Below are positions 23,334-54,972 of a stretch of DNA of 64,000 bases, piece by piece. The notes under the pieces were generated by a model. The model ran no database searches, was not told where the DNA came from, and saw nothing but the letters and a program-made list of their open reading frames with translations. Position 1 is the first letter of the stretch. Each line of letters starts with the position of its first letter. Made by a program: the position numbers and the translations under genes. Source of the DNA: Polycladidibacter stylochi (lineage in GTDB: Bacteria; Pseudomonadota; Alphaproteobacteria; Rhizobiales; Stappiaceae); NCBI RefSeq assembly GCF_001562055.1, contig NZ_LLWE01000014.1, forward strand, positions 62,001 to 126,000, in the 5' to 3' direction.

Positions 23334-23472
23334 GTTTCTAAGTATTATCTGAGTTGCAAGTTATATTGATTTCAATCATTTTCCCATTAAATATAACAGA
23401 TGTTTTATTCAAGCTTAGTTGGTTGTGACTGTTCCATTAAATTCACTAAGCATTTTAAGAGGAATTTACTCA

Positions 23473-25581
23473 ATGAAAAAATCCCCACGTAGTGTTTCCT
23501 TGGGGCTTGTTGCGGCTGGCATATTATTCAGCACATCAGCGCTTGCCTCACCTGCCCTAGAAAGCATTGATGCGTTAAACAACTGGCTAAAAACTGCAGG
23601 GTTTGAAAAAGCAGCCTATGAGAGCGCCGAGGAAAAAGGTGATACTCTCACGCTTCAGAACTATACGCTCTCCTTGCCATTTTCTTTAAACGCGGATGGC
23701 GATAGCATCACCGGTTCTTTTAGTATTGTCTATGATAGTCTGGATCTTAAAGGTTTTGAAAAAAACACAAATAGCTATTTCGTTAAAGAAGCATTCAGCC
23801 CTCTTTCACATATGGACTTTAATTATACAGTAAGCACAAGCAAAACCATTGTAGGAAAAGACGGTAAGACAAAAACTGTTGTTACTCCTTACAGCCAAAA
23901 ACTAAAATTCACCATTGAAGATACACGCACACTTGATTGGGTTTTGCCGCAATTAAGTGAAATAAAACAAGATCCTGCCAAGCCAATCAGCGGCTATATT
24001 AGCCTCGTTAACGAGTTTATGCAGGGCGGTTATAGCCTTTCGACAACCGGTAAAATCACTTCAGAGCAGTCTGACAGTCTAGGTGCTTCATCTAAAGCGA
24101 CGGTTGCAACGACTAAAGTTACGAATGCCAAAGACGGTATGATCGAAGCGATCGAGTATGGTAAACAAATAAGCTCACAACTGACGCCAATTGGTGAAAG
24201 CGGCAAGACTTTACGTATTGAGGCCGAACTTGATACAGGCGGGCTCAAAAACATTAATATCCGTCCATTACTTGCTATGCTCAACGGCCAAAAGAGTGAC
24301 GAAAAAACTCTGGTTTCGTCAGGAGCTTATGGCCAAATTTCCTATGAAATATTTGGTGAAAAGGGTTTCGAGACCATTGATGCTGGTAAACCGATAGCAA
24401 AGGTTATCTCAAAAGGGTCTGAGCTTCGCGATATTGAATGGTATGGCGGCAACTTCACTCAATTGTTCTCTATGGTTGACCAAGCTTATTTAGGCAATGA
24501 CCCCAAAGTTGAAAATCCAGCCGATTTAATTGCGCAAATGGGTAATTTCCGGATTGGTTCAATTAAGGACAAGGGGGCTACATTCGAGGTTTTACAGCCT
24601 ATTCAGTTAAATAAGAGCACCATACCAGCACTTACAGCCAAATATGATGGTATGGCGCTCGAAGAACTTACCAATACCTCCCTTGGTGCTTTCGAATTTA
24701 CTGGCTTGCACGTTAATAAGGCTATGCCGGTTCCAGAAATTAATCTGGATAAATTACGCGTTGCTAACGTGAGCTGGTTACCCGTTAGTGAAATAGTTAA
24801 ACTTGCCAAGGATAAAACTCTTTCAGAATCTGAAAAAGGAATGAAAATGGCGCCTGAAATCGGCGAAATTTTACTTTCTGGCATCAAGTTTGATATGGGT
24901 TTAAGTGATAAGCCAGAGTTCAGGTTAGATGAAATTCACCTCACCAATAGCAACTATGTCGGCGCTTTCCCAACCAATATGCGGCTGAAAACAGAGCACT
25001 TGGCGTATAATGCCATGTTGCTTGGAAATGCCCAAATGCGGTTGCCTTTTGGCAATATCTCGCTGCCATACCCAGTCATAAACCAGGACTTGCAAATCAA
25101 GTGGGATGAAGCAAAGCAAACTCTGGATCTCAAGAACCTGATGTTTGAAGTGGAAGATGGCATTATGGCCACAGCAAAGCTTTCCTTTGGCGGCATTCCA
25201 AAACAAATCTTTGAAGATCCTGAAAATGCACAGCTTGCCATGATGAGTGCAACGTTCAATGGCGGTGAGGTTGTTATTAAGGATGCTCAGCTAATAAAAG
25301 AGGCCTTAGAAAACGGTGCTCAAAAAGCTGGCGTCAGCCTTGATGATTATATTGAGCAACAGGGCACTATACTCACCATGCTTATGGGACCAATTTCCAA
25401 AAGTGAGTTTGCGGCCAATCTTGTAGATGCTTTCAAAACCTTTGGCAAAAATCCTAATGAGCTGGTCATTGAACTGGCTCCAGAAAAACCAGTAGCCTTA
25501 ATTGCTCTGGGTGCTCTTGCTGGTATGCAACCTGAGAAATTACCTGAAGAGCTTGGCGCTTCGGTTTTTGTAAAGCAATAA
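23473..25581 (+). CDS. Large exported protein of unknown function
   Basis: 702 residues from ATG 23473, preceded by GAGGAA; an upstream GTG-type start at 23419 would mask the signal peptide. Residues 1-24 form a Sec signal with a likely cut after SALA. The rest is hydrophilic, beta-rich in appearance, without membrane segments, and cysteine-free as far as I can see. It has repeated stretches such as LRDIEWYGGNFTQL and LRVANVSWLPVSE. I do not recognise a family; AsmA-like or DUF945-like periplasmic proteins are conceivable. It is monocistronic between two terminators. Confidence 0.75.
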   Translation: MKKSPRSVSLGLVAAGILFSTSALASPALESIDALNNWLKTAGFEKAAYESAEEKGDTLTLQNYTLSLPFSLNADGDSITGSFSIVYDSLDLKGFEKNTNSYFVKEAFSPLSHMDFNYTVSTSKTIVGKDGKTKTVVTPYSQKLKFTIEDTRTLDWVLPQLSEIKQDPAKPISGYISLVNEFMQGGYSLSTTGKITSEQSDSLGASSKATVATTKVTNAKDGMIEAIEYGKQISSQLTPIGESGKTLRIEAELDTGGLKNINIRPLLAMLNGQKSDEKTLVSSGAYGQISYEIFGEKGFETIDAGKPIAKVISKGSELRDIEWYGGNFTQLFSMVDQAYLGNDPKVENPADLIAQMGNFRIGSIKDKGATFEVLQPIQLNKSTIPALTAKYDGMALEELTNTSLGAFEFTGLHVNKAMPVPEINLDKLRVANVSWLPVSEIVKLAKDKTLSESEKGMKMAPEIGEILLSGIKFDMGLSDKPEFRLDEIHLTNSNYVGAFPTNMRLKTEHLAYNAMLLGNAQMRLPFGNISLPYPVINQDLQIKWDEAKQTLDLKNLMFEVEDGIMATAKLSFGGIPKQIFEDPENAQLAMMSATFNGGEVVIKDAQLIKEALENGAQKAGVSLDDYIEQQGTILTMLMGPISKSEFAANLVDAFKTFGKNPNELVIELAPEKPVALIALGALAGMQPEKLPEELGASVFVKQ

Positions 25582-38296: not shown

Positions 38297-38923
38297 TTAC
38301 AGCGCCGAAATGCCAATGAGCCATTCATGTGCTTTTAGCAGCATTGCCAAGTATAGACTCATGCCCAATAGTATCGCAGTGGCATCATTGAGGCGCATTG
38401 ATGTCTTTTTTTGCCGCAGATTACTTGATCCGGCCAAAGCTGTACTTGTTTGCTTTGCATAGGTCAGTCTGGAGATAATCGCCCAGACCAAGAAACTGAC
38501 GAACAAAATAATGGAATGGCTTTCGCCGTTGACCAGAAGATGCGCACTTGCCCACAGCATGATGGCATATTGGACCGGATAGCCAATTGTTTTGCGTATG
38601 TAACCTTTAAAAAAAACGGAGCATACCAACGGGAATACAGGAAGTAAAAGCGTATAAGCTAGGTGGCGTGTCCACTGAGGGGGGTAATACAAAACATCAT
38701 AGTCGCTATAGCGCGCTTCAGAAAAACCATAGATAATCAACACCAGCCCGATTGTTGCCAGACCATGGAACATGCCCTTGATTTTTTTTGCACGCTTTGT
38801 TTCTGCCGGATTTGGCGAAGCACCTTTACTGCCGTCACTACTAGTGGTTTGCGCACCTATAAAAACCGGGGGCAATAAATGGCTGATGATGGTAAGGGCT
38901 ATTCCAATCGTCAGGTAAAGCAT
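38297..38923 (-). CDS. NnrU family membrane protein (copy 1)
   Basis: 208 residues with five to six hydrophobic segments. NnrU features: the N-terminal LTIGIALTIISHLLPP, HGLATIGLVLIIYGFSEAR, and ASAHLLVNGESHSIILF. NnrU was named in denitrification clusters but is widespread and its activity is unknown. It carries a Ser/Pro-rich polar insert at residues 25-45 that copy 2 lacks. Located 230 bases downstream of the second NnrU gene. Confidence 0.8.
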   Translation of the reverse strand: MLYLTIGIALTIISHLLPPVFIGAQTTSSDGSKGASPNPAETKRAKKIKGMFHGLATIGLVLIIYGFSEARYSDYDVLYYPPQWTRHLAYTLLLPVFPLVCSVFFKGYIRKTIGYPVQYAIMLWASAHLLVNGESHSIILFVSFLVWAIISRLTYAKQTSTALAGSSNLRQKKTSMRLNDATAILLGMSLYLAMLLKAHEWLIGISAL

Positions 38924-39154: not shown

Positions 39155-39733
39155 TTACATAGCTGGCACCCCAAACAATTTTTCATGCAAATAGACGACA
39201 AACAAGACATGGATACTTAAGCCGATAAGTATGGCAAGAAAATCATTTTTTACATTGCCTTTGGCCCATTCAGTGCGCCCTGCCGCTTTATCTCTTTTAT
39301 TGTTTGAAATGCGATCAATTACCGACCAAAGAAAAAAGCAGCCAAATAGCGCGATTGCCTGCGGCTCACCACCTACTATCAAATGCGCTAGTGACCACAG
39401 GGAAACGGCCAACAGCATGGGGTGGTGGGTATTTTTCTTTATATATCCTGGTAGATAGGCCGATGCGAACAATGGAAATACCGGCAACATGAGTAGCCCT
39501 GCGATAATATTGGTATAGGGGCCATGTAATGAATAAACGTGGTCAAGCGACAAATCTCTTGCCATTCCATAACCATAAACCATTGCCGCGATACCAGCCA
39601 TTGCGAAGAGACCTAAAAAGCCCTTGATTTTCTCCTCACCGTATGTGTGTTTTAAATGGGCATATTGCCTGGTTGCCATGGGCAGACTGTGACTGCCGAT
39701 GAATAGTATGAGCCCTAGAATAAGAAGTGCCAT
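39155..39733 (-). CDS. NnrU family membrane protein (copy 2)
   Basis: 192 residues from ATG 39733, which has GGGAG at 7 bases; the longer frame to 39856 adds an unconserved basic leader and is rejected. Segments match the NnrU family: LGLILFIGSHSLPM, MAGIAAMVYGYGMARD and LWSLAHLIVGGEPQAIALFG. A paralogue of the gene at 38297. No denitrification genes are nearby. Confidence 0.82.
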   Translation of the reverse strand: MALLILGLILFIGSHSLPMATRQYAHLKHTYGEEKIKGFLGLFAMAGIAAMVYGYGMARDLSLDHVYSLHGPYTNIIAGLLMLPVFPLFASAYLPGYIKKNTHHPMLLAVSLWSLAHLIVGGEPQAIALFGCFFLWSVIDRISNNKRDKAAGRTEWAKGNVKNDFLAILIGLSIHVLFVVYLHEKLFGVPAM

Positions 39734-39826
39734 TTTCAACTCCCACTTTGAAAATTTAACAGCACAAGTGATAGAATTCTTATTTAGTATTTTAAACAAT
39801 ACTACACATTTACAAGGCTTTCGAGA

Positions 39827-40090: not shown

Positions 40091-41320
40091 TTATTCCAGT
40101 ACCTCAAAAGCTGCGGTGTTGCCCCATGATATTGGCTCACAGTTGCCGAGTTTACGCTTTATTCCTGTCTCAGGCATCTGTTGTAGCTTGTTGGCTATTT
40201 TCAGCGCCATTTGCCTATCACCGAATGTGTGACCGAACTGTGCTTTTACCGTAGGCTGTAGAAAGTGAATTGAATCGCCAAAAATTTGCTGCTCATGATG
40301 AATGAACAGCTGCGACAGGTCGAGAAATTTTTGGGAGGTGGACATGGATTCACGTACCATATGCAAATAATCATCGGGTGCACGATACGTTATTACCTTT
40401 TCCTCTTTTGGTGTTAATGATTTACCATTGGGAAACGGTTGCAATACTTGCAAGTAGGGTATTTTGCGGGCTTTTGCCAATGCTGCAAAATCAGCCACAA
40501 AAGCCTTGTAACGCGTTACATTGTGGTAAACGGTTTCTCTGTTATGTGTGGCACCTGCAGATGCTTGATAGATATAATTGGCCGAAGAATATTGGGCGTT
40601 TTCGTGGTTTTGTTGCGAGCTGAGCCATTTCCTGCCAATTACTGCGAACAAACGCGGTGTTGCCATTTTATTAAGCGTCGTCTTGCCCAGCGCTTCAACG
40701 TAATTCAAATACAAGTTTGCACCAACACCACGGTTGGCGAGATGAAAAAACGTATTGGCGGGAACAGATAGGTCCACTAGATTTTTTAGGGTAAAATGCT
40801 CATTAAATCCCTCAATTGATAGGGCCAAATCAATTTCATTGCCAAAAAGCATAAGGGCAATTTCTTGTTGCGGGTGTTTCCATGCAGCACCTGCCAAGTT
40901 TATGGTGCGAAACGTCCCCCCCTTGGGAGAAGTGAAGCAACTGTTTAAAAGCTGCTCGAAAGCTGCAGACTTGTGGCCATCAACACCGGCGAACTGATTG
41001 GCAACCGAGCCGCCAAAAATGCCGACCCTGTATATTGAAGTATCATCTCGCTCAAGTGCCCTGCCCCAAAATCCCAGCTCGTTCAGTTGCACACAATTGG
41101 ATTGGATAAAGCCAAAGTATGGATGCAACTTATAGCTGGAGGCATTGGCGATACAATTAGATGTTGTTTGCGCGTGCGTGTTGTTGCTATTGTTAACCAC
41201 ATTATAAAAGCTCTTATTATTGCCAGAAGCGACTAAAAAAAGCCATGCCGAGACTTCAACAAGAACAAGCGCAAGAATTACTAGTAGCGACCAAAAAGCC
41301 AGCGGCTTAATCCAACTCAT
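40091..41320 (-). CDS. Membrane-anchored SGNH-hydrolase-like protein
   Basis: 409 residues. One N-terminal membrane anchor (about residues 7-31) and an extracytoplasmic domain. SGNH blocks can be seen: GIFGGSVA with Ser105, the Gly of NLAGAAW near 144, GFNE near 171-174 in the block III position, and GDSIHF with Asp349 and His352. Such domains act as esterases or O-acyltransferases on surface glycans or lipids. Overlaps the carbamoyltransferase gene by 14 bases and is the last gene of that operon, so it probably acts on the same product. Confidence 0.75.
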   Translation of the reverse strand: MSWIKPLAFWSLLVILALVLVEVSAWLFLVASGNNKSFYNVVNNSNNTHAQTTSNCIANASSYKLHPYFGFIQSNCVQLNELGFWGRALERDDTSIYRVGIFGGSVANQFAGVDGHKSAAFEQLLNSCFTSPKGGTFRTINLAGAAWKHPQQEIALMLFGNEIDLALSIEGFNEHFTLKNLVDLSVPANTFFHLANRGVGANLYLNYVEALGKTTLNKMATPRLFAVIGRKWLSSQQNHENAQYSSANYIYQASAGATHNRETVYHNVTRYKAFVADFAALAKARKIPYLQVLQPFPNGKSLTPKEEKVITYRAPDDYLHMVRESMSTSQKFLDLSQLFIHHEQQIFGDSIHFLQPTVKAQFGHTFGDRQMALKIANKLQQMPETGIKRKLGNCEPISWGNTAAFEVLE

Positions 41321-43187
41321 ATTTTGCCTCGTAACTTACACGCAATTTTGGGTTTTGCTCTTTCTTTTCCAGAACAAAATCACCAATAACCAACATATCC
41401 AGCTCTGTACCCATAAAGCAGCGGAAAGCGTCTTGCGGTGTGCATACGATTGGTTCTCCGCGTACGTTGAATGATGTATTGACCACAATCGGACAGCCGG
41501 TTAACGCGAAAAAACGACTGATTAAAGCGTGATAGCGCGGGTTGGTTTGTGCGCTTACCGTTTGGATGCGAGCGCTATAATCCACATGGGTTATCGCCGG
41601 AATTTGCGAGCGCGGAACATTAAGTTTTTCAATGCCAAACAGCTGTTGCTGCTGTGATGATAGTGGAATTTGATGCTGGCGAGCAACCTGTGCGACCATG
41701 AGCATATAAGGGCTTTTTGCTTTTAAATCGAACCAGTTTTCCAGCTCCTCTTCCAGCACACTTGGCGCAAACGGGCGAAAGGACTCGCGGAATTTAACTT
41801 TTAAATTGAGCTGGCGCTGCATATTCGGGCTACGTGGATCGGCAATAATTGAGCGCGCGCCCAGCGCACGCGGGCCGAACTCCATGGCCCCGTTCATCCA
41901 GCCTATGGCTTGCCCTTTTGCCAGTGCTTGTGCTGTTTGTTCAACAACCCCTTCTGAGGTGTATTTTTGATAGGAAGCGCCACTGCTGTTTAGAGCAGCC
42001 TCTATTTCATTACTGGTGTAATTTGGTCCTAAATAGGCTCCTTGCATTTTATCTTGCGGCTGGTATGCGCCCGATGTGTTTTGCGTGCTGGGCTTTGTAT
42101 GATGGCTACTCTTTAAGCGGGTGCCTTGATGTGCATGGTAGAGTGCCAGTGCCGCCCCCAGTGCGCCCCCAGCATCGCCCGCAGCGGGTTGAACCCAGAT
42201 TTCTTTGAATATGCCTTTGGCTTGTAATAGGCCGTTGGCAACACAGTTAAGGGCAACACCACCGGCAAGGCAGAGATTTTCCGCGCCGGTTTTTACCTTT
42301 AAATCACTCGCCAGTTTCAAAATAACCTCTTCGCAGACCTTCTGCACCGAGGCGGCTAAATCCATTTGCTTTTGCGTGAGTTTGCTTTCTGCTGCACGTG
42401 GTGGCCCACCAAATAACCGATGGAAATGTTTGTTGGTCATAGAAAGGCCGGTGCAGTAATCGAAGTAGCGCATATTGAGGCGAAAAGAGCCATCTGCGGC
42501 GATATCTATCAGCTCCTGTTTAATAAGATCAGCATATCTTGGCGTACCATAGGGGGCCAACCCCATAACCTTGTATTCGCCGGAATTGACTTTAAACCCC
42601 GTATATTGGGTGAATGCCGAATACAGGAGACCAAGGGAGTGCGGGAACTCAATTGATTTCATTGGGGTTATGCCACTACCGGCCCCCATTGCCATGGATG
42701 TAGTGGTCCACTCGCCCACCCCGTCCAGCGTTAAAATGGCGGCTTCTTCAAAGGGAGAGGGAAAAAAAGCCGAAGCAGCATGGGATAAATGATGCTCGCT
42801 AAACATTAAGCGCTCTTGCCAATTCAACTGATCGCCAAGGCTTTGTTGTAGTGCTTTAATAATTTGCTGCTTTTGAAAGAGTTTGTCTTTTATCCAAAGT
42901 GGCAGAGCGCGGCGAAAACTGGAAAAGCCACGGGGAGCGAATGCCAAATATGTTTCTAGCAGGCGCTCAAACTTCAAAAACGGTTTATCGTAGAACACCA
43001 CATAATCAATATCTTGTGGTTTTAAGCCGCTATGCGTTAAGAGCCATTGGCAGCTTTGTGCCGGGAAAGAGGCATCGTGCTTTTTACGCGTGAAACGCTC
43101 CTCCTGAACCGCAGCTATAATGTCGCCATCCGATATTAGGGCGGCAGCACTATCATGGTAATATGCCGAGATTCCGATTATATTCAT
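41307..43187 (-). CDS. O-carbamoyltransferase (NodU/CmcH/TobZ/SxtI family)
   Basis: 626 residues from ATG 43187, which has GAGG six bases upstream; the longer frame to 43295 runs through the DUF5989 gene and is rejected. The Kae1-like N-terminal half has His132, His136 and Asp155, with the same spacing as the iron ligands of TobZ as I recall them, plus GDAGGALGAALALY. The C-terminal carbamoyl-transfer part has MEFGPRALGARSIIADPR and FNVRGEPIVCTPQDA. It transfers carbamoyl from carbamoyl phosphate to a hydroxyl group, usually on a sugar or natural product. Acceptor unknown. Confidence 0.92.
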   Translation of the reverse strand: MNIIGISAYYHDSAAALISDGDIIAAVQEERFTRKKHDASFPAQSCQWLLTHSGLKPQDIDYVVFYDKPFLKFERLLETYLAFAPRGFSSFRRALPLWIKDKLFQKQQIIKALQQSLGDQLNWQERLMFSEHHLSHAASAFFPSPFEEAAILTLDGVGEWTTTSMAMGAGSGITPMKSIEFPHSLGLLYSAFTQYTGFKVNSGEYKVMGLAPYGTPRYADLIKQELIDIAADGSFRLNMRYFDYCTGLSMTNKHFHRLFGGPPRAAESKLTQKQMDLAASVQKVCEEVILKLASDLKVKTGAENLCLAGGVALNCVANGLLQAKGIFKEIWVQPAAGDAGGALGAALALYHAHQGTRLKSSHHTKPSTQNTSGAYQPQDKMQGAYLGPNYTSNEIEAALNSSGASYQKYTSEGVVEQTAQALAKGQAIGWMNGAMEFGPRALGARSIIADPRSPNMQRQLNLKVKFRESFRPFAPSVLEEELENWFDLKAKSPYMLMVAQVARQHQIPLSSQQQQLFGIEKLNVPRSQIPAITHVDYSARIQTVSAQTNPRYHALISRFFALTGCPIVVNTSFNVRGEPIVCTPQDAFRCFMGTELDMLVIGDFVLEKKEQNPKLRVSYEAKYELD

Positions 43188-43195
43188 GGAAACCT

Positions 43196-43345
43196 CTAGA
43201 ACAGGGTGTAGATAAACGGTGCCACGACCGAGCCTTGAGCAATTATGAGCACACCACCCAAAAGCAGCATTATAAACACCAGAGGGGCCAACCATATTTT
43301 TTTACGTTGACGCAAGAAGGCCCATAGCTCGATTATTGTTTCCAT
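43196..43345 (-). CDS. DUF5989 family 49-residue membrane protein (SxtK-like)
   Basis: A short gene that I found by reading the gap between its neighbours. ATG at 43345 with AGGGG upstream, TAG at 43198-43196, 49 residues. It reads METIIELWAFLRQRKKIWLA, then one membrane helix and the ending QGSVVAPFIYTLF. That ending matches the DUF5989 proteins that accompany SxtJ and carbamoyltransferases. Function is unknown; a membrane partner of the carbamoyltransferase is inferred. It is 8 bases after the SxtJ-like gene and 8 bases before the carbamoyltransferase. Confidence 0.85.
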   Translation of the reverse strand: METIIELWAFLRQRKKIWLAPLVFIMLLLGGVLIIAQGSVVAPFIYTLF

Positions 43346-43353
43346 AAGTGCCC

Positions 43354-43767
43354 CTAGTATTGTTTTTTGAAGAAAGCAGGGTTTTGGGCGTCAATTTCCT
43401 GGGGTTTCCAATAGGTTGCACCTGATTTGTCTGCTTTAAGGTGCAGTGCATCACGCCCAAAGCCGCGCATCACCAGTGCCATGGGGGTGAGGATGAGAAA
43501 AAAGATTACGCCCATGACAAGCGGCGAAATGACTTTGCCAATGAGCAAACCGAGCAGCATCCACGCCTTGTTCAAATGCACGAGAAAACCCGGACGCAGC
43601 AGAGCAAGCAGCATGAAAGAAAAAGCTATGAAGAGGCTGGCCGCGGCATAATGAAGAGCTTGGGCTGCGATTAAATAAAACGCTGCAAGTGTAAACACGA
43701 GCGCGAAAAACAGCCCGAAACGACGGTTGCTCGGTAGCTTTAGCATTTGTAGTTCTTGTTGCAGCAT
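43354..43767 (-). CDS. SxtJ family membrane protein
   Basis: 137 residues from ATG 43767, with AAGG five bases upstream. Four hydrophobic segments, then a soluble tail ending in the characteristic SGATYWKPQEIDAQNPAFFKKQY-type sequence (residues about 115-137), which I recognise from SxtJ proteins of saxitoxin and many unrelated clusters. Role unknown. First gene of the SxtJ, DUF5989, carbamoyltransferase, SGNH operon. The upstream LysR gene is on the same strand and ends 134 bases away. Confidence 0.82.
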   Translation of the reverse strand: MLQQELQMLKLPSNRRFGLFFALVFTLAAFYLIAAQALHYAAASLFIAFSFMLLALLRPGFLVHLNKAWMLLGLLIGKVISPLVMGVIFFLILTPMALVMRGFGRDALHLKADKSGATYWKPQEIDAQNPAFFKKQY

Positions 43768-53424: not shown

Positions 53425-54972
53425 ATGACAGACCGCATTCTTATCATCGATTTTGGATCACAGGTCACCCAGCTCATTGCACGGCGCGTGCGCGAGTCTG
53501 GTGTGTATTCTGAGATTGTGCCGTTCCAATCCGCAGAAGCTGCTTTCAAGGAAATGAATCCGAAGGCGGTTATCCTGTCGGGCGGTCCGGCCTCAACGAC
53601 TGAACTGGGGAGCCCACGCGCACCCCAGAGTATCTTTGAAGCAGGCATTCCCGTTCTTGGCATTTGTTATGGTCAACAGACCATGTGTGCGCAATTGGGT
53701 GGGCGCGTTGCTACTTCTGACCACCGCGAATTTGGCCGTGCCTTTGTTTCTGCCCAAAAGTCCTCGCCGTTATTCGACGGGATCTGGGCTCAGGGCGAGC
53801 AACACCAGGTTTGGATGAGCCACGGCGACCGCGTGGAAGCGCTACCTGAAGGTTTTGAAGTAATTGCCACCTCGGAAGGTGCGCCTTTTGCTGCTATTGC
53901 CGATGAAACACGCCAGTTTTACGGCGTTCAGTTCCACCCAGAAGTGGTGCATACTCCCGATGGGGCCAAGCTCATTTCAAACTTCACCCACAAAATTGCC
54001 GGGTGTGGTGGCGATTGGACCATGGCTGAATACCGCCAGCAGGCGATTGAGGCTATTTGCAAGCAAGTGGGCGATGGCAAAGTTATTTGCGGCCTTTCCG
54101 GCGGTGTTGACAGCTCGGTTGCAGCAGTTCTTATTCATGAAGCCATTGGCGATCAGCTCACTTGTATTTACGTGGACCATGGCTTGATGCGCCAAGGTGA
54201 AACGGAACAAGTGGTGTCCATGTTTAAGGACCACTACAATATTCCGTTGGTGCATGTGGATGCCTCCGACTTGTTTATTGGCCAGCTGGAAGGCGAAGCC
54301 GACCCCGAGAAGAAGCGCAAGACCATTGGCCGCTTATTTATCGAAGTGTTCGAGCAAGAGGCCAAGAAGCTGGGCGGTGCTGATTTCCTTGCACAAGGCA
54401 CACTGTATCCGGATGTGATCGAGAGTGTTTCGTTCACCGGCGGTCCTTCGGTCACCATTAAATCGCACCACAACGTGGGTGGTTTGCCAGAGCGCATGAA
54501 TATGCAGCTGGTGGAACCACTTCGCGAGTTGTTCAAGGATGAGGTCCGCGAACTTGGTAAAGAGCTTGGCTTGCCCGAGAGCTTTATTGGACGCCACCCC
54601 TTCCCTGGCCCTGGCCTTGCCATTCGTTGTCCAGGCGGTATAACCCGCGAGAAACTGGATATTTTGCGTCAAGCCGATGCGATTTATTTGGATGAAATTC
54701 GCAATGCCGGCCTGTACGATGCTATTTGGCAGGCTTTTGCCGTATTGCTGCCAGTGCAAACTGTGGGCGTTATGGGCGATGGCCGTACCTATGAGTTCGT
54801 TTGCGCCTTGCGTGCGGTGACCTCGGTGGATGGCATGACCGCTGATTTCTACCACTATGATATGGAGTTCCTCTCCAAGGCGGCGACCCGCATTATCAAT
54901 GAGGTGAAAGGTATTAACCGCGTTGTTTACGATGTGACCTCAAAGCCCCCTGGAACTATTGAGTGGGAATAA
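53425..54972 (+). CDS. guaA: GMP synthase (glutamine-hydrolysing)
   Basis: 515 residues. Class I amidotransferase with the Cys of GICYGQQTM and the His/Glu of [12 protein letters not shown]-pyrophosphatase with the P-loop [10 protein letters not shown]-terminal dimerisation domain ending [15 protein letters not shown]. Converts XMP to GMP after GuaB. Followed by a strong terminator. Confidence 0.97.

What the first reader, a model, noticed from the sequence alone, without database searches (positions are those of the whole stretch)
40091..43767. Carbamoyltransferase, SxtJ-like, DUF5989 and SGNH cassette in an alphaproteobacterium
Four minus-strand genes with gaps of about 8 bases or overlaps: SxtJ-like membrane protein, a 49-residue DUF5989/SxtK-like protein (missed by simple ORF length cut-offs), an O-carbamoyltransferase with TobZ-like metal ligands, and a membrane-anchored SGNH protein with visible Ser/Asp/His. 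SxtI/J/K are known by name from saxitoxin clusters, but no toxin core genes are here. The set looks like a self-contained membrane module that carbamoylates, and perhaps acylates or deacylates, a surface glycan or lipid. The role of SxtJ and DUF5989 is not established, so this compact form is a good place to study them.
Basis: partly seen in the sequence, partly recalled or inferred. Interest (0 to 1): 0.72.

Follow-up and report, generated by a model that had tools for sequence, protein, structure and literature searches.

The report
Putative membrane shuttle for carbamoyl groups
Four neighbouring genes look like a machine that loads a carbamoyl group in the cytoplasm onto the tail tyrosine of a 49-residue membrane protein, which would hand it to an enzyme outside that decorates a surface molecule; this would give two puzzling protein families, known mainly by name from a toxin gene cluster, a testable job.

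Summary
In detail: SxtJ, DUF5989, a two-domain O-carbamoyltransferase (CT) and a membrane-anchored SGNH protein lie in one tight minus-strand operon. The first three are a conserved unit: SxtJ in 89 and CT in 91 of 100 DUF5989 loci. The CTs form one clade. In a 385-genome draw all 55 genomes with SxtJ over cut-off had DUF5989. SGNH is the commonest extra neighbour (42 of 99 loci).

New here: DUF5989 ends, exactly at its C-terminus, in FxYxxF (100 of 102, Tyr 102 of 102; 27 and 29 of 29 in a further draw). This is the published acyl-shuttle motif of DltX and PatA, whose Tyr carries an acyl group to an SGNH serine (PMC12148441). Of 1,337 other called genes in the loci only six end this way, all Pfam MBOATs. 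The window's genome has no MBOAT match.

I therefore propose a Dlt-like carbamoyl shuttle: CT with SxtJ loads DUF5989's Tyr, which passes the group to the SGNH enzyme and so to a surface acceptor. Chemistry, SxtJ's role and acceptor are inferred. Confidence about 0.6.

The parts
43354..43767 (-). SxtJ family membrane protein, 137 aa, three hydrophobic segments, charged C-terminal tail
   Evidence: PF19588 46.6 bits over cut-off 24.4; hydrophobic segments 17-35, 45-63, 74-92
43196..43345 (-). DUF5989 microprotein, 49 aa, one membrane helix; basic N-terminal half, C-terminus with little or no charge
   Evidence: PF19451 84.2 bits; hydrophobic segment 17-35; in 102 family members 3 or more Lys/Arg in residues 1-19, none in the last 14 residues of 74 and at most one in the rest: N-inside, C-outside by the positive-inside rule
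43199..43216 (-). C-terminal hexapeptide FIYTLF, proposed carbamoyl shuttle; Tyr46 codon at 43208-43210
   Evidence: FxYxxF in 100 of 102, Tyr in 102 of 102; 27 of 29 and 29 of 29 in a further draw
41307..43187 (-). O-carbamoyltransferase (TobZ/NodU/SxtI type), 626 aa, no membrane segment found
   Evidence: PF02543 367 bits, PF16861 249 bits; phmmer to novobiocin carbamoyltransferase chain 9s2t E 3.1e-95 and to GdmN and TobZ chains; no hydrophobic segment
42870..42971 (-). Clade-specific amphipathic, basic segment of the CT (residues 73-106, FERLLETYLAFAPRGFSSFRRALPLWIKDKLFQK), candidate docking surface
   Evidence: Pattern P.G...F..A.P.W in 40 of 45 trio CTs and 0 of 23 other CTs
40091..41320 (-). 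Membrane-anchored SGNH protein, 409 aa, proposed carbamoyl transferase to the acceptor
41231..41287 (-). N-terminal membrane anchor of the SGNH protein (residues 12-30)
   Evidence: mean hydropathy 2.81
41006..41008 (-). SGNH nucleophile Ser105 (block I, GGS)
   Evidence: invariant in 17 of 17 rows and 48 of 48 SGNH proteins next to the core
40265..40276 (-). SGNH block V, Asp349 and His352 (DSIH)
   Evidence: His352 invariant in 17 of 17 rows

Best explanation
A Dlt/PatAB-like shuttle that moves carbamoyl instead of acyl groups. (1) The cytosolic CT makes an activated carbamoyl group (known for relatives such as TobZ, recalled; inferred here). (2) CT docks on the membrane protein SxtJ, perhaps through its clade-specific amphipathic segment, and together they carbamoylate the C-terminal Tyr46 of DUF5989 (inferred). 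DUF5989 thus takes the place of DltX, and CT plus SxtJ take the place of the MBOAT DltB or PatA. (3) The loaded tail, on the outer side, hands the group to Ser105 of the membrane-anchored SGNH protein, in the role of DltD or PatB (inferred). (4) The SGNH protein transfers it to a hydroxyl of a periplasmic or surface acceptor, probably a glycan (inferred). Shown here: gene families, operon, co-occurrence, a single CT clade, the invariant tail, SGNH fold and residues, and no MBOAT match in the genome.
For: FxYxxF at the exact C-terminus in 100 of 102 DUF5989 ORFs, Tyr in 102 of 102; 27 of 29 and 29 of 29 in the 28 best-scoring new loci of a phylum draw with 65 matches. The motif is named as the acyl shuttle of DltX and PatA (FXYXXF; NgPatA FIYANF), with acyl-Tyr and then acyl-Ser on the SGNH partner (PMC12148441, passages, Discussion). 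Of the 30 MBOAT loci returned from a class draw, 29 gave a readable ORF and all 29 end the same way, some as APFIYFQF against APFIYTLF here. Among 1,337 other called genes in the set-1 loci only 6 end in F.Y..F, and all 6 are Pfam MBOATs. The window's genome has no MBOAT match. In 385 genomes DUF5989 (72) and high-scoring CT (72) share 69 genomes, Fisher 1.6e-68, and all 55 over-cut-off SxtJ genomes have DUF5989. Trio CTs are one clade, SH-aLRT 100, 45 trio rows plus 2 others. SGNH hits within 300 bp of the core run at 0.76 and 0.92 per kb (overlapping genes counted in), against 0.006 to 0.063 per kb farther out. Of 9 DUF5989 loci without a CT in the stretch, 8 have an SGNH gene within 400 bp. 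The genomes of five of these (G110, G122, G134, G220, G374) have a trio elsewhere, that of G220 cut by a contig end, and G095 likewise. In G183 and G409, without a CT or SxtJ match, DUF5989 sits with SGNH and an MBOAT. 44 of 48 adjacent SGNH proteins have an N-terminal membrane-like segment.
Against: No biochemistry. In 57 of 99 set-1 loci and 39 of 82 set-2 loci no SGNH gene lies within 300 bp by my profile, and some adjacent ones may serve an MBOAT instead (as in L070). No Pfam DltX hit for DUF5989, and profile comparison with MBOAT tails aligns only 13 columns at probability 47, so shared descent is not shown. How a soluble CT reaches an outward Tyr is unexplained, and SxtJ has no reliable model. 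Carbamoylated serine hydrolases usually turn over slowly (general knowledge). The closest solved structure, CgnD, is reported as a hydrolase. At block II, where PatB has Ser or Asn in place of Gly, the SGNH proteins here show no one clear replacement. Genomes G201 and G264 have a trio-type CT but no DUF5989 match. Two sub-cut-off SxtJ matches (G206, G299) are in genomes without DUF5989.
Confidence: 0.6

Rival explanations
1. SxtJ and DUF5989 are only a membrane platform. CT carbamoylates a lipid-linked glycan or lipid on the cytoplasmic face before export, and the SGNH protein is a separate esterase or acyltransferase.
For: CT has no membrane segment and its solved relatives are antibiotic-tailoring enzymes. 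SGNH is not within 300 bp in 57 of 99 loci. CT carries a clade-specific amphipathic segment that could dock to the membrane.
Against: Does not explain an invariant C-terminal FxYxxF that in these loci is otherwise seen only on MBOATs, nor DUF5989 beside SGNH without CT in 8 of 9 such loci.
Confidence: 0.2
2. The SGNH protein removes carbamoyl groups (decarbamoylase, as listed for SxtL) or cleaves another bond, balancing the CT.
For: sxtL is listed as 'Decarbamoylation' beside sxtI/J/K (PMC2679770 passages). Closest fold CgnD is a slow leader-peptide hydrolase in a cluster that also has a carbamoyltransferase, CgnI. Most of the 50 structural matches shown are titled esterases, lipases or hydrolases.
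Confidence: 0.12
3. The FxYxxF tail is a convergent interface anchor without covalent chemistry.
For: Similarity to MBOAT tails is at motif level only; aromatic residues at membrane borders are common (general knowledge).
Against: Tyr is invariant in 131 of 131 ORFs examined and the chain ends at the same residue of the motif as in MBOATs.
Confidence: 0.06
4. DUF5989 serves an MBOAT elsewhere in the genome and the link to CT is secondary.
For: DUF5989 with SGNH and MBOAT and no CT match in G183 and G409; in G311 (L155) the same set faces an SGNH-CT-SxtJ set.
Against: No MBOAT match in the window's genome; MBOATs carry their own motif (29 of 29 readable).
Confidence: 0.02

Closest known systems
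Dlt pathway (DltX-DltB-DltD)
   Same: Separate membrane microprotein with FxYxxF tail; membrane partner; SGNH partner (PMC12148441)
   Different: No MBOAT match in the genome; no Pfam DltX hit; donor enzyme is a carbamoyltransferase, not the DltC carrier
PatA/PatB and other MBOAT-SGNH O-acetylation systems
   Same: FxYxxF Tyr as carrier, SGNH Ser as next carrier; 29 of 29 readable class MBOATs share the tail
   Different: There the motif is fused to the MBOAT; here it is on a microprotein with CT and SxtJ
SxtI/SxtJ/SxtK/SxtL of saxitoxin clusters and sxtJ/K/L-like genes of suomilide clusters
   Same: Same set of names: carbamoyltransferase, SxtJ, small SxtK, SxtL; [quoted passage not shown] PMC10157211 passages)
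   Different: No toxin or NRPS genes among the 30 window proteins scanned (not every ORF); homology of this SGNH to SxtL not tested
TobZ, GdmN, NovN O-carbamoyltransferases
   Same: Same two-domain enzyme
   Different: Those tailor antibiotics (recalled); trio CTs form their own clade with an extra amphipathic segment
CgnD (crocagin cluster SGNH)
   Same: Best PDB match by profile and fold; its cluster also has a carbamoyltransferase, CgnI
   Different: Reported as a slow leader-peptide hydrolase

Membership tests
Acyl-shuttle systems (DltX or PatA type) | C-terminal FxYxxF hexapeptide with invariant Tyr | tested here: met
   100 of 102 and Tyr 102 of 102; 27 of 29 and 29 of 29; window FIYTLF
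Acyl-shuttle systems (DltX or PatA type) | MBOAT partner with catalytic His | tested here: not met
   No PF03062 match in the window's genome, completeness 99.98 (completeness)
Acyl-shuttle systems (DltX or PatA type) | SGNH partner with nucleophile Ser, membrane-anchored, outward | tested here: met
   Fold and Ser/Asn/His; N-terminal hydrophobic segment. That it faces outward is inferred
Acyl-shuttle systems (DltX or PatA type) | Acyl group carried on the Tyr | not testable with these tools
   needs mass spectrometry
DltX family (Pfam) | Profile match | tested here: not met
   No DltX hit for 3 DUF5989 proteins up to E 10, though HMMER's filters drop most weak hits
O-carbamoyltransferase (TobZ/NodU type) | Carbam_trans_N and Carbam_trans_C domains | tested here: met
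   367 and 249 bits
O-carbamoyltransferase (TobZ/NodU type) | Metal-site motifs HxxxH and Asp | tested here: met
   HHLSHA and GDAGG align with HHLAHA and HDAGS of 9s2t; that these are the metal ligands is recalled
SxtJ (PF19588) | Profile match over cut-off | tested here: met
   46.6 bits, cut-off 24.4
DUF5989 (PF19451) | Profile match over cut-off | tested here: met
   84.2 bits, cut-off 27
SGNH superfamily | SGNH fold with conserved Ser, Asn and His blocks | tested here: met
SGNH acyltransferases (PatB/OatA type) | Block II Gly replaced by Ser or Asn | tested here: inconclusive
   By eye the window has Ala near block II; relatives mixed

The most novel reading that the evidence does not exclude
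A second, MBOAT-independent class of tyrosine shuttles: carbamoyl chemistry in the cytosol powers transfer of carbamoyl groups across the membrane as O-carbamoyl-tyrosine on DUF5989, with SxtJ as a new kind of transmembrane passage and interchangeable SGNH proteins choosing the acceptor. One CT-SxtJ engine could charge several DUF5989-SGNH pairs in one cell. If so, carbamoylation by SxtI-type enzymes with SxtJ/SxtK/SxtL partners would be a membrane process.
Probability: 0.5. Interest if true: 0.88.

Novelty: new variant of a known kind. Interest (0 to 1): 0.77.

Why it matters
SxtJ and DUF5989 have been names without a tested function as far as I found: a library search for 'DUF5989' gave 0 papers, sxtJ and sxtK are listed as 'Unknown' in PMC2679770, and of the 27 papers holding two or more of 'carbamoyltransferase', 'SGNH' and 'MBOAT' the 12 shown all lacked the first term. 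The reading gives each of the four proteins a definite chemical job and single-residue predictions. It extends the tyrosine shuttle beyond MBOAT and AT3 enzymes, predicts carbamoyl decoration of surface molecules in many bacteria (trio loci in Pseudomonadota, Nitrospirota, Cyanobacteriota, Gemmatimonadota and others), and suggests how natural-product carbamoylation might be tied to the membrane.

Tried and rejected
Rejected: (a) chance co-location of the trio: excluded. (b) DUF5989 as a member of the DltX family: no profile hit; hhalign to 18 MBOAT tails covers 13 columns, probability 47, so only 'works like'. (c) A Dlt-like ligase and carrier in the Methylosinus plasmid locus: on reading its sequence the 79-aa protein next to the AMP-binding gene did not look like a carrier, dropped. 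(d) Recent foreign DNA by GC: cassette 0.473, window 0.459, not informative; presence is patchy, 2 of the 16 genus genomes shown. (e) Promoter and terminator scan: about as many sites as in shuffles.

Led nowhere: the pseudo-trimer fold. SxtJ pLDDT is about 24-61 by blocks and nothing was read from the complex. My DxxH pattern test on adjacent SGNH proteins was met by only 18 of 48; the profile alignment does not cover the window's C-terminal block, so block V rests on the 17 rows.

Limits of counts: set 1 = 100 stretches around the matches (not fetched: G194:C27 at 28 bits and three sub-cut-off matches). L153 (G267) gave no DUF5989 ORF (the match has an in-frame TAG; the stretch has 96 ambiguous bases); the window plus the other 99 make the 100 loci. 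L085 and L156 overlap on one contig. Set 2 = 80 named loci plus 2 plasmid loci; the 80 were picked by a pattern that contains APF[IV]Y[TA], so set 2 is not used for motif conservation, and L255 and L281 have the contig length and range of set-1 loci L101 and L112. The SGNH profile was grown over 8 rounds and is broad; adjacency counts both strands. The 48 adjacent SGNH proteins include the window and use a looser rule than the 42 loci. The CT tree holds 68 rows: 45 of 168 trio CTs (7 chosen, 38 drawn at random) and all 23 others; 'trio' means SxtJ or DUF5989 within 1.5 kb; quick method. 'High-scoring CT' is my cut at about 265 bits, and one of the 72, G121, falls outside the trio clade in the tree. 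By Pfam cut-off 17 of 72 DUF5989 genomes lack SxtJ; my own profile finds SxtJ, once partial, at the locus in 13 of these. The MBOAT loci are those returned of the best matches, one per genome; L321 gave no readable ORF.

Papers: PMC12148441 passages and Discussion; PMC2679770, PMC10157211, PMC10885120 and PMC10070186 passages; others listing only. The Dlt paper behind the motif (Schultz and others, Nature Microbiology 2023) is recalled, not read.
Full report

THE CORE IS A TRIO. I fetched 100 stretches around DUF5989 matches in relatives and in the class and searched them with profiles grown from the window's proteins. Of 100 loci with a DUF5989 ORF, window included, 89 have SxtJ and 91 have CT in the stretch, mostly as SxtJ-DUF5989-CT in close order. 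Among 82 named or plasmid loci 80 have SxtJ and 80 have CT, partly in the order CT-SxtJ-DUF5989, from Pseudomonadota, Nitrospirota, Cyanobacteriota and Gemmatimonadota among others. In one draw of 385 genomes of the class, DUF5989 over its cut-off is in 72, SxtJ in 55 and a high-scoring CT in 72. All 55 SxtJ genomes have DUF5989; two further sub-cut-off SxtJ matches (G206, G299) do not. DUF5989 and high-scoring CT share 69 genomes (Fisher 1.6e-68), while of 63 genomes with only lower-scoring CTs one has DUF5989 (lists). None of 14 well-known control genomes has a DUF5989 or SxtJ match, 3 have a CT. Trio CTs are one clade with SH-aLRT 100 (45 trio rows plus L208 and L209; 21 other CTs outside; quick tree). 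They share an amphipathic basic segment, residues 73-106 here; the pattern P.G...F..A.P.W is in 40 of 45 trio and 0 of 23 other CTs.

SGNH IS THE FREQUENT FOURTH. An SGNH gene lies within 300 bp of the core, on either strand, in 42 of 99 loci of set 1 and 43 of 82 of set 2, at 0.76 and 0.92 per kb, against 0.006-0.063 per kb farther away. Of the other immediate neighbours, 97 proteins were scanned and show no dominant family: methyltransferases (up to 11), sugar epimerases (6), glycosyltransferases (3). Of 48 adjacent SGNH proteins, Gly103 and Ser105 are kept in 48, Asn173 in 36, and 44 have an N-terminal hydrophobic segment. They are very divergent, as one would expect if they choose different acceptors: by BLAST only the congener's (L059, 42% identity) is close to the window's.

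THE TAIL OF DUF5989. DUF5989 ends in FIYTLF. In 102 DUF5989 ORFs the last six residues fit FxYxxF in 100, with Tyr in 102 and a final Phe in 102. In 28 further loci, the best-scoring new ones of a phylum draw with 65 matches, 29 ORFs give 27 and Tyr 29, with CT in 27 of 28 loci and SxtJ in 22 of 28 short stretches. PMC12148441 names FXYXXF as the acyl-shuttle motif of the microprotein DltX and of PatA-type MBOATs: the MBOAT loads an acyl group on the Tyr, and the tail carries it to the Ser of an SGNH partner; NgPatA ends FIYANF. I tested specificity in the same DNA. Among 1,337 other called genes only 6 end F.Y..F, and among 12,599 other ORFs also 6; all 6 called genes are Pfam MBOATs (L070, L145, L150, L158; L155, L157). 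Of 30 MBOAT loci returned from a draw of 142 genomes of the class, 29 gave a readable ORF and all 29 end FxYxxF, several as APFIYFQF. The paper states that other MBOAT/SGNH pathways lack a DltX-like microprotein; DUF5989 would be such a microprotein, not in an MBOAT pathway but in a carbamoyl pathway. Charges point to N-inside, C-outside.

NATURAL EXPERIMENTS. Nine set-1 loci have DUF5989 without CT in the stretch (L066, L072, L077, L081, L082, L148, L152, L157, L158); eight have SGNH within 400 bp of DUF5989, only L082 does not. The genomes of L066, L072, L077, L081, L148 and L152 have a trio elsewhere, as if one engine served several DUF5989-SGNH pairs. G147 keeps CT-SxtJ in one place and DUF5989 in another (L211, L082). 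G183 and G409 have no SxtJ and no CT match, and there DUF5989 sits with SGNH and an MBOAT; in G311 (L155) the same set faces an SGNH-CT-SxtJ set. The window's genome has no MBOAT match.

MECHANISM. The best reading is a carbamoyl shuttle built like Dlt: CT and SxtJ replace the MBOAT, DUF5989 replaces DltX, the SGNH protein replaces DltD. A carbamate on Tyr would lie between the activated donor and an alcohol ester in energy, by the argument made for acyl groups. Shown: parts, linkage, motif, fold. Inferred: Tyr loading, topology, Ser transfer, acceptor. Weak points: SxtJ's role, the slow turnover usual for carbamoylated Ser (general knowledge), the loci without adjacent SGNH, and two genomes with a trio-type CT but no DUF5989 match. 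Of these, G264's CT (L208) is in the clade without SxtJ found nearby; G201's CT (L207) was not in the tree but is 66-70% identical to its five best trio CTs, has the trio pattern, and has an SxtJ-like ORF (40 bits) on the other strand 666 bp away.

COMPARISON. SxtI, SxtJ and SxtK were proposed to act together and SxtL is listed as decarbamoylation in saxitoxin clusters (PMC2679770 passages); a suomilide cluster holds sxtJ, K and L-like genes (PMC10157211 passages). So the four genes here mirror four sxt names, but I did not compare the SGNH protein with SxtL. CgnD, the nearest solved relative, comes from a cluster with a reported carbamoyltransferase, CgnI, and was described as a slow protease that phenylmethylsulfonyl fluoride did not label (PMC10070186 passages). 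Whether that slow activity is its true role is a question raised, not answered, by the present reading.

VERDICT. Real, widespread and conserved; not filed as a Dlt system because the MBOAT criterion was tested and not met, but likely to work like one. Library searches for 'DUF5989', for carbamoyltransferase with SGNH or MBOAT (12 of 27 papers seen as listing) and for acyl shuttle, microprotein, DltD and carbamoyl (8 of 48 seen) showed no paper stating this idea among the listings I saw.

Noticed in passing
window 38297-38923 and 39155-39739, minus strand: Two NnrU-family membrane proteins in tandem directly downstream of the cassette.
   Followed up: no
L059 (congener G013) and window 53425-54972: In the congener the cassette lies next to a GMP synthase gene; in the window GMP synthase is about 10 kb away and the cassette sits between NnrU and LysR genes, so its place differs within the genus; 2 of the 16 genus genomes shown have DUF5989.
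   Followed up: partly
L072, L077, L081, L148, L152: DUF5989-SGNH pairs without CT or SxtJ in genomes that hold a trio elsewhere.
   Followed up: yes
L158, 7128-7280 and 8001-8153: Tandem duplicate DUF5989 genes upstream of SGNH and MBOAT.
   Followed up: partly
L241, L251, L275, L346: SGNH gene between SxtJ and DUF5989, a tighter link than mere neighbourhood.
   Followed up: no
PDB 8a2n (CgnD): Closest solved structure to the window's SGNH comes from a natural-product cluster that also has a carbamoyltransferase.
   Followed up: partly
L307 (Methylosinus plasmid) and L306 (S. meliloti pSymB): The cassette is carried on large plasmids.
   Followed up: no
G267 (L153): DUF5989 match with an in-frame stop and only a weaker CT match (best E 1.8e-35) in the same genome; the stretch has 96 ambiguous bases, so decay is possible but not shown.
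   Followed up: no
C-termini of SxtJ proteins: Many SxtJ proteins end in a short ...QF...PF or ...PY tail, a candidate docking tail for CT.
   Followed up: no
window 23419-25581, plus strand: 720-residue ORF without a Pfam hit at E 1e-5.
   Followed up: no
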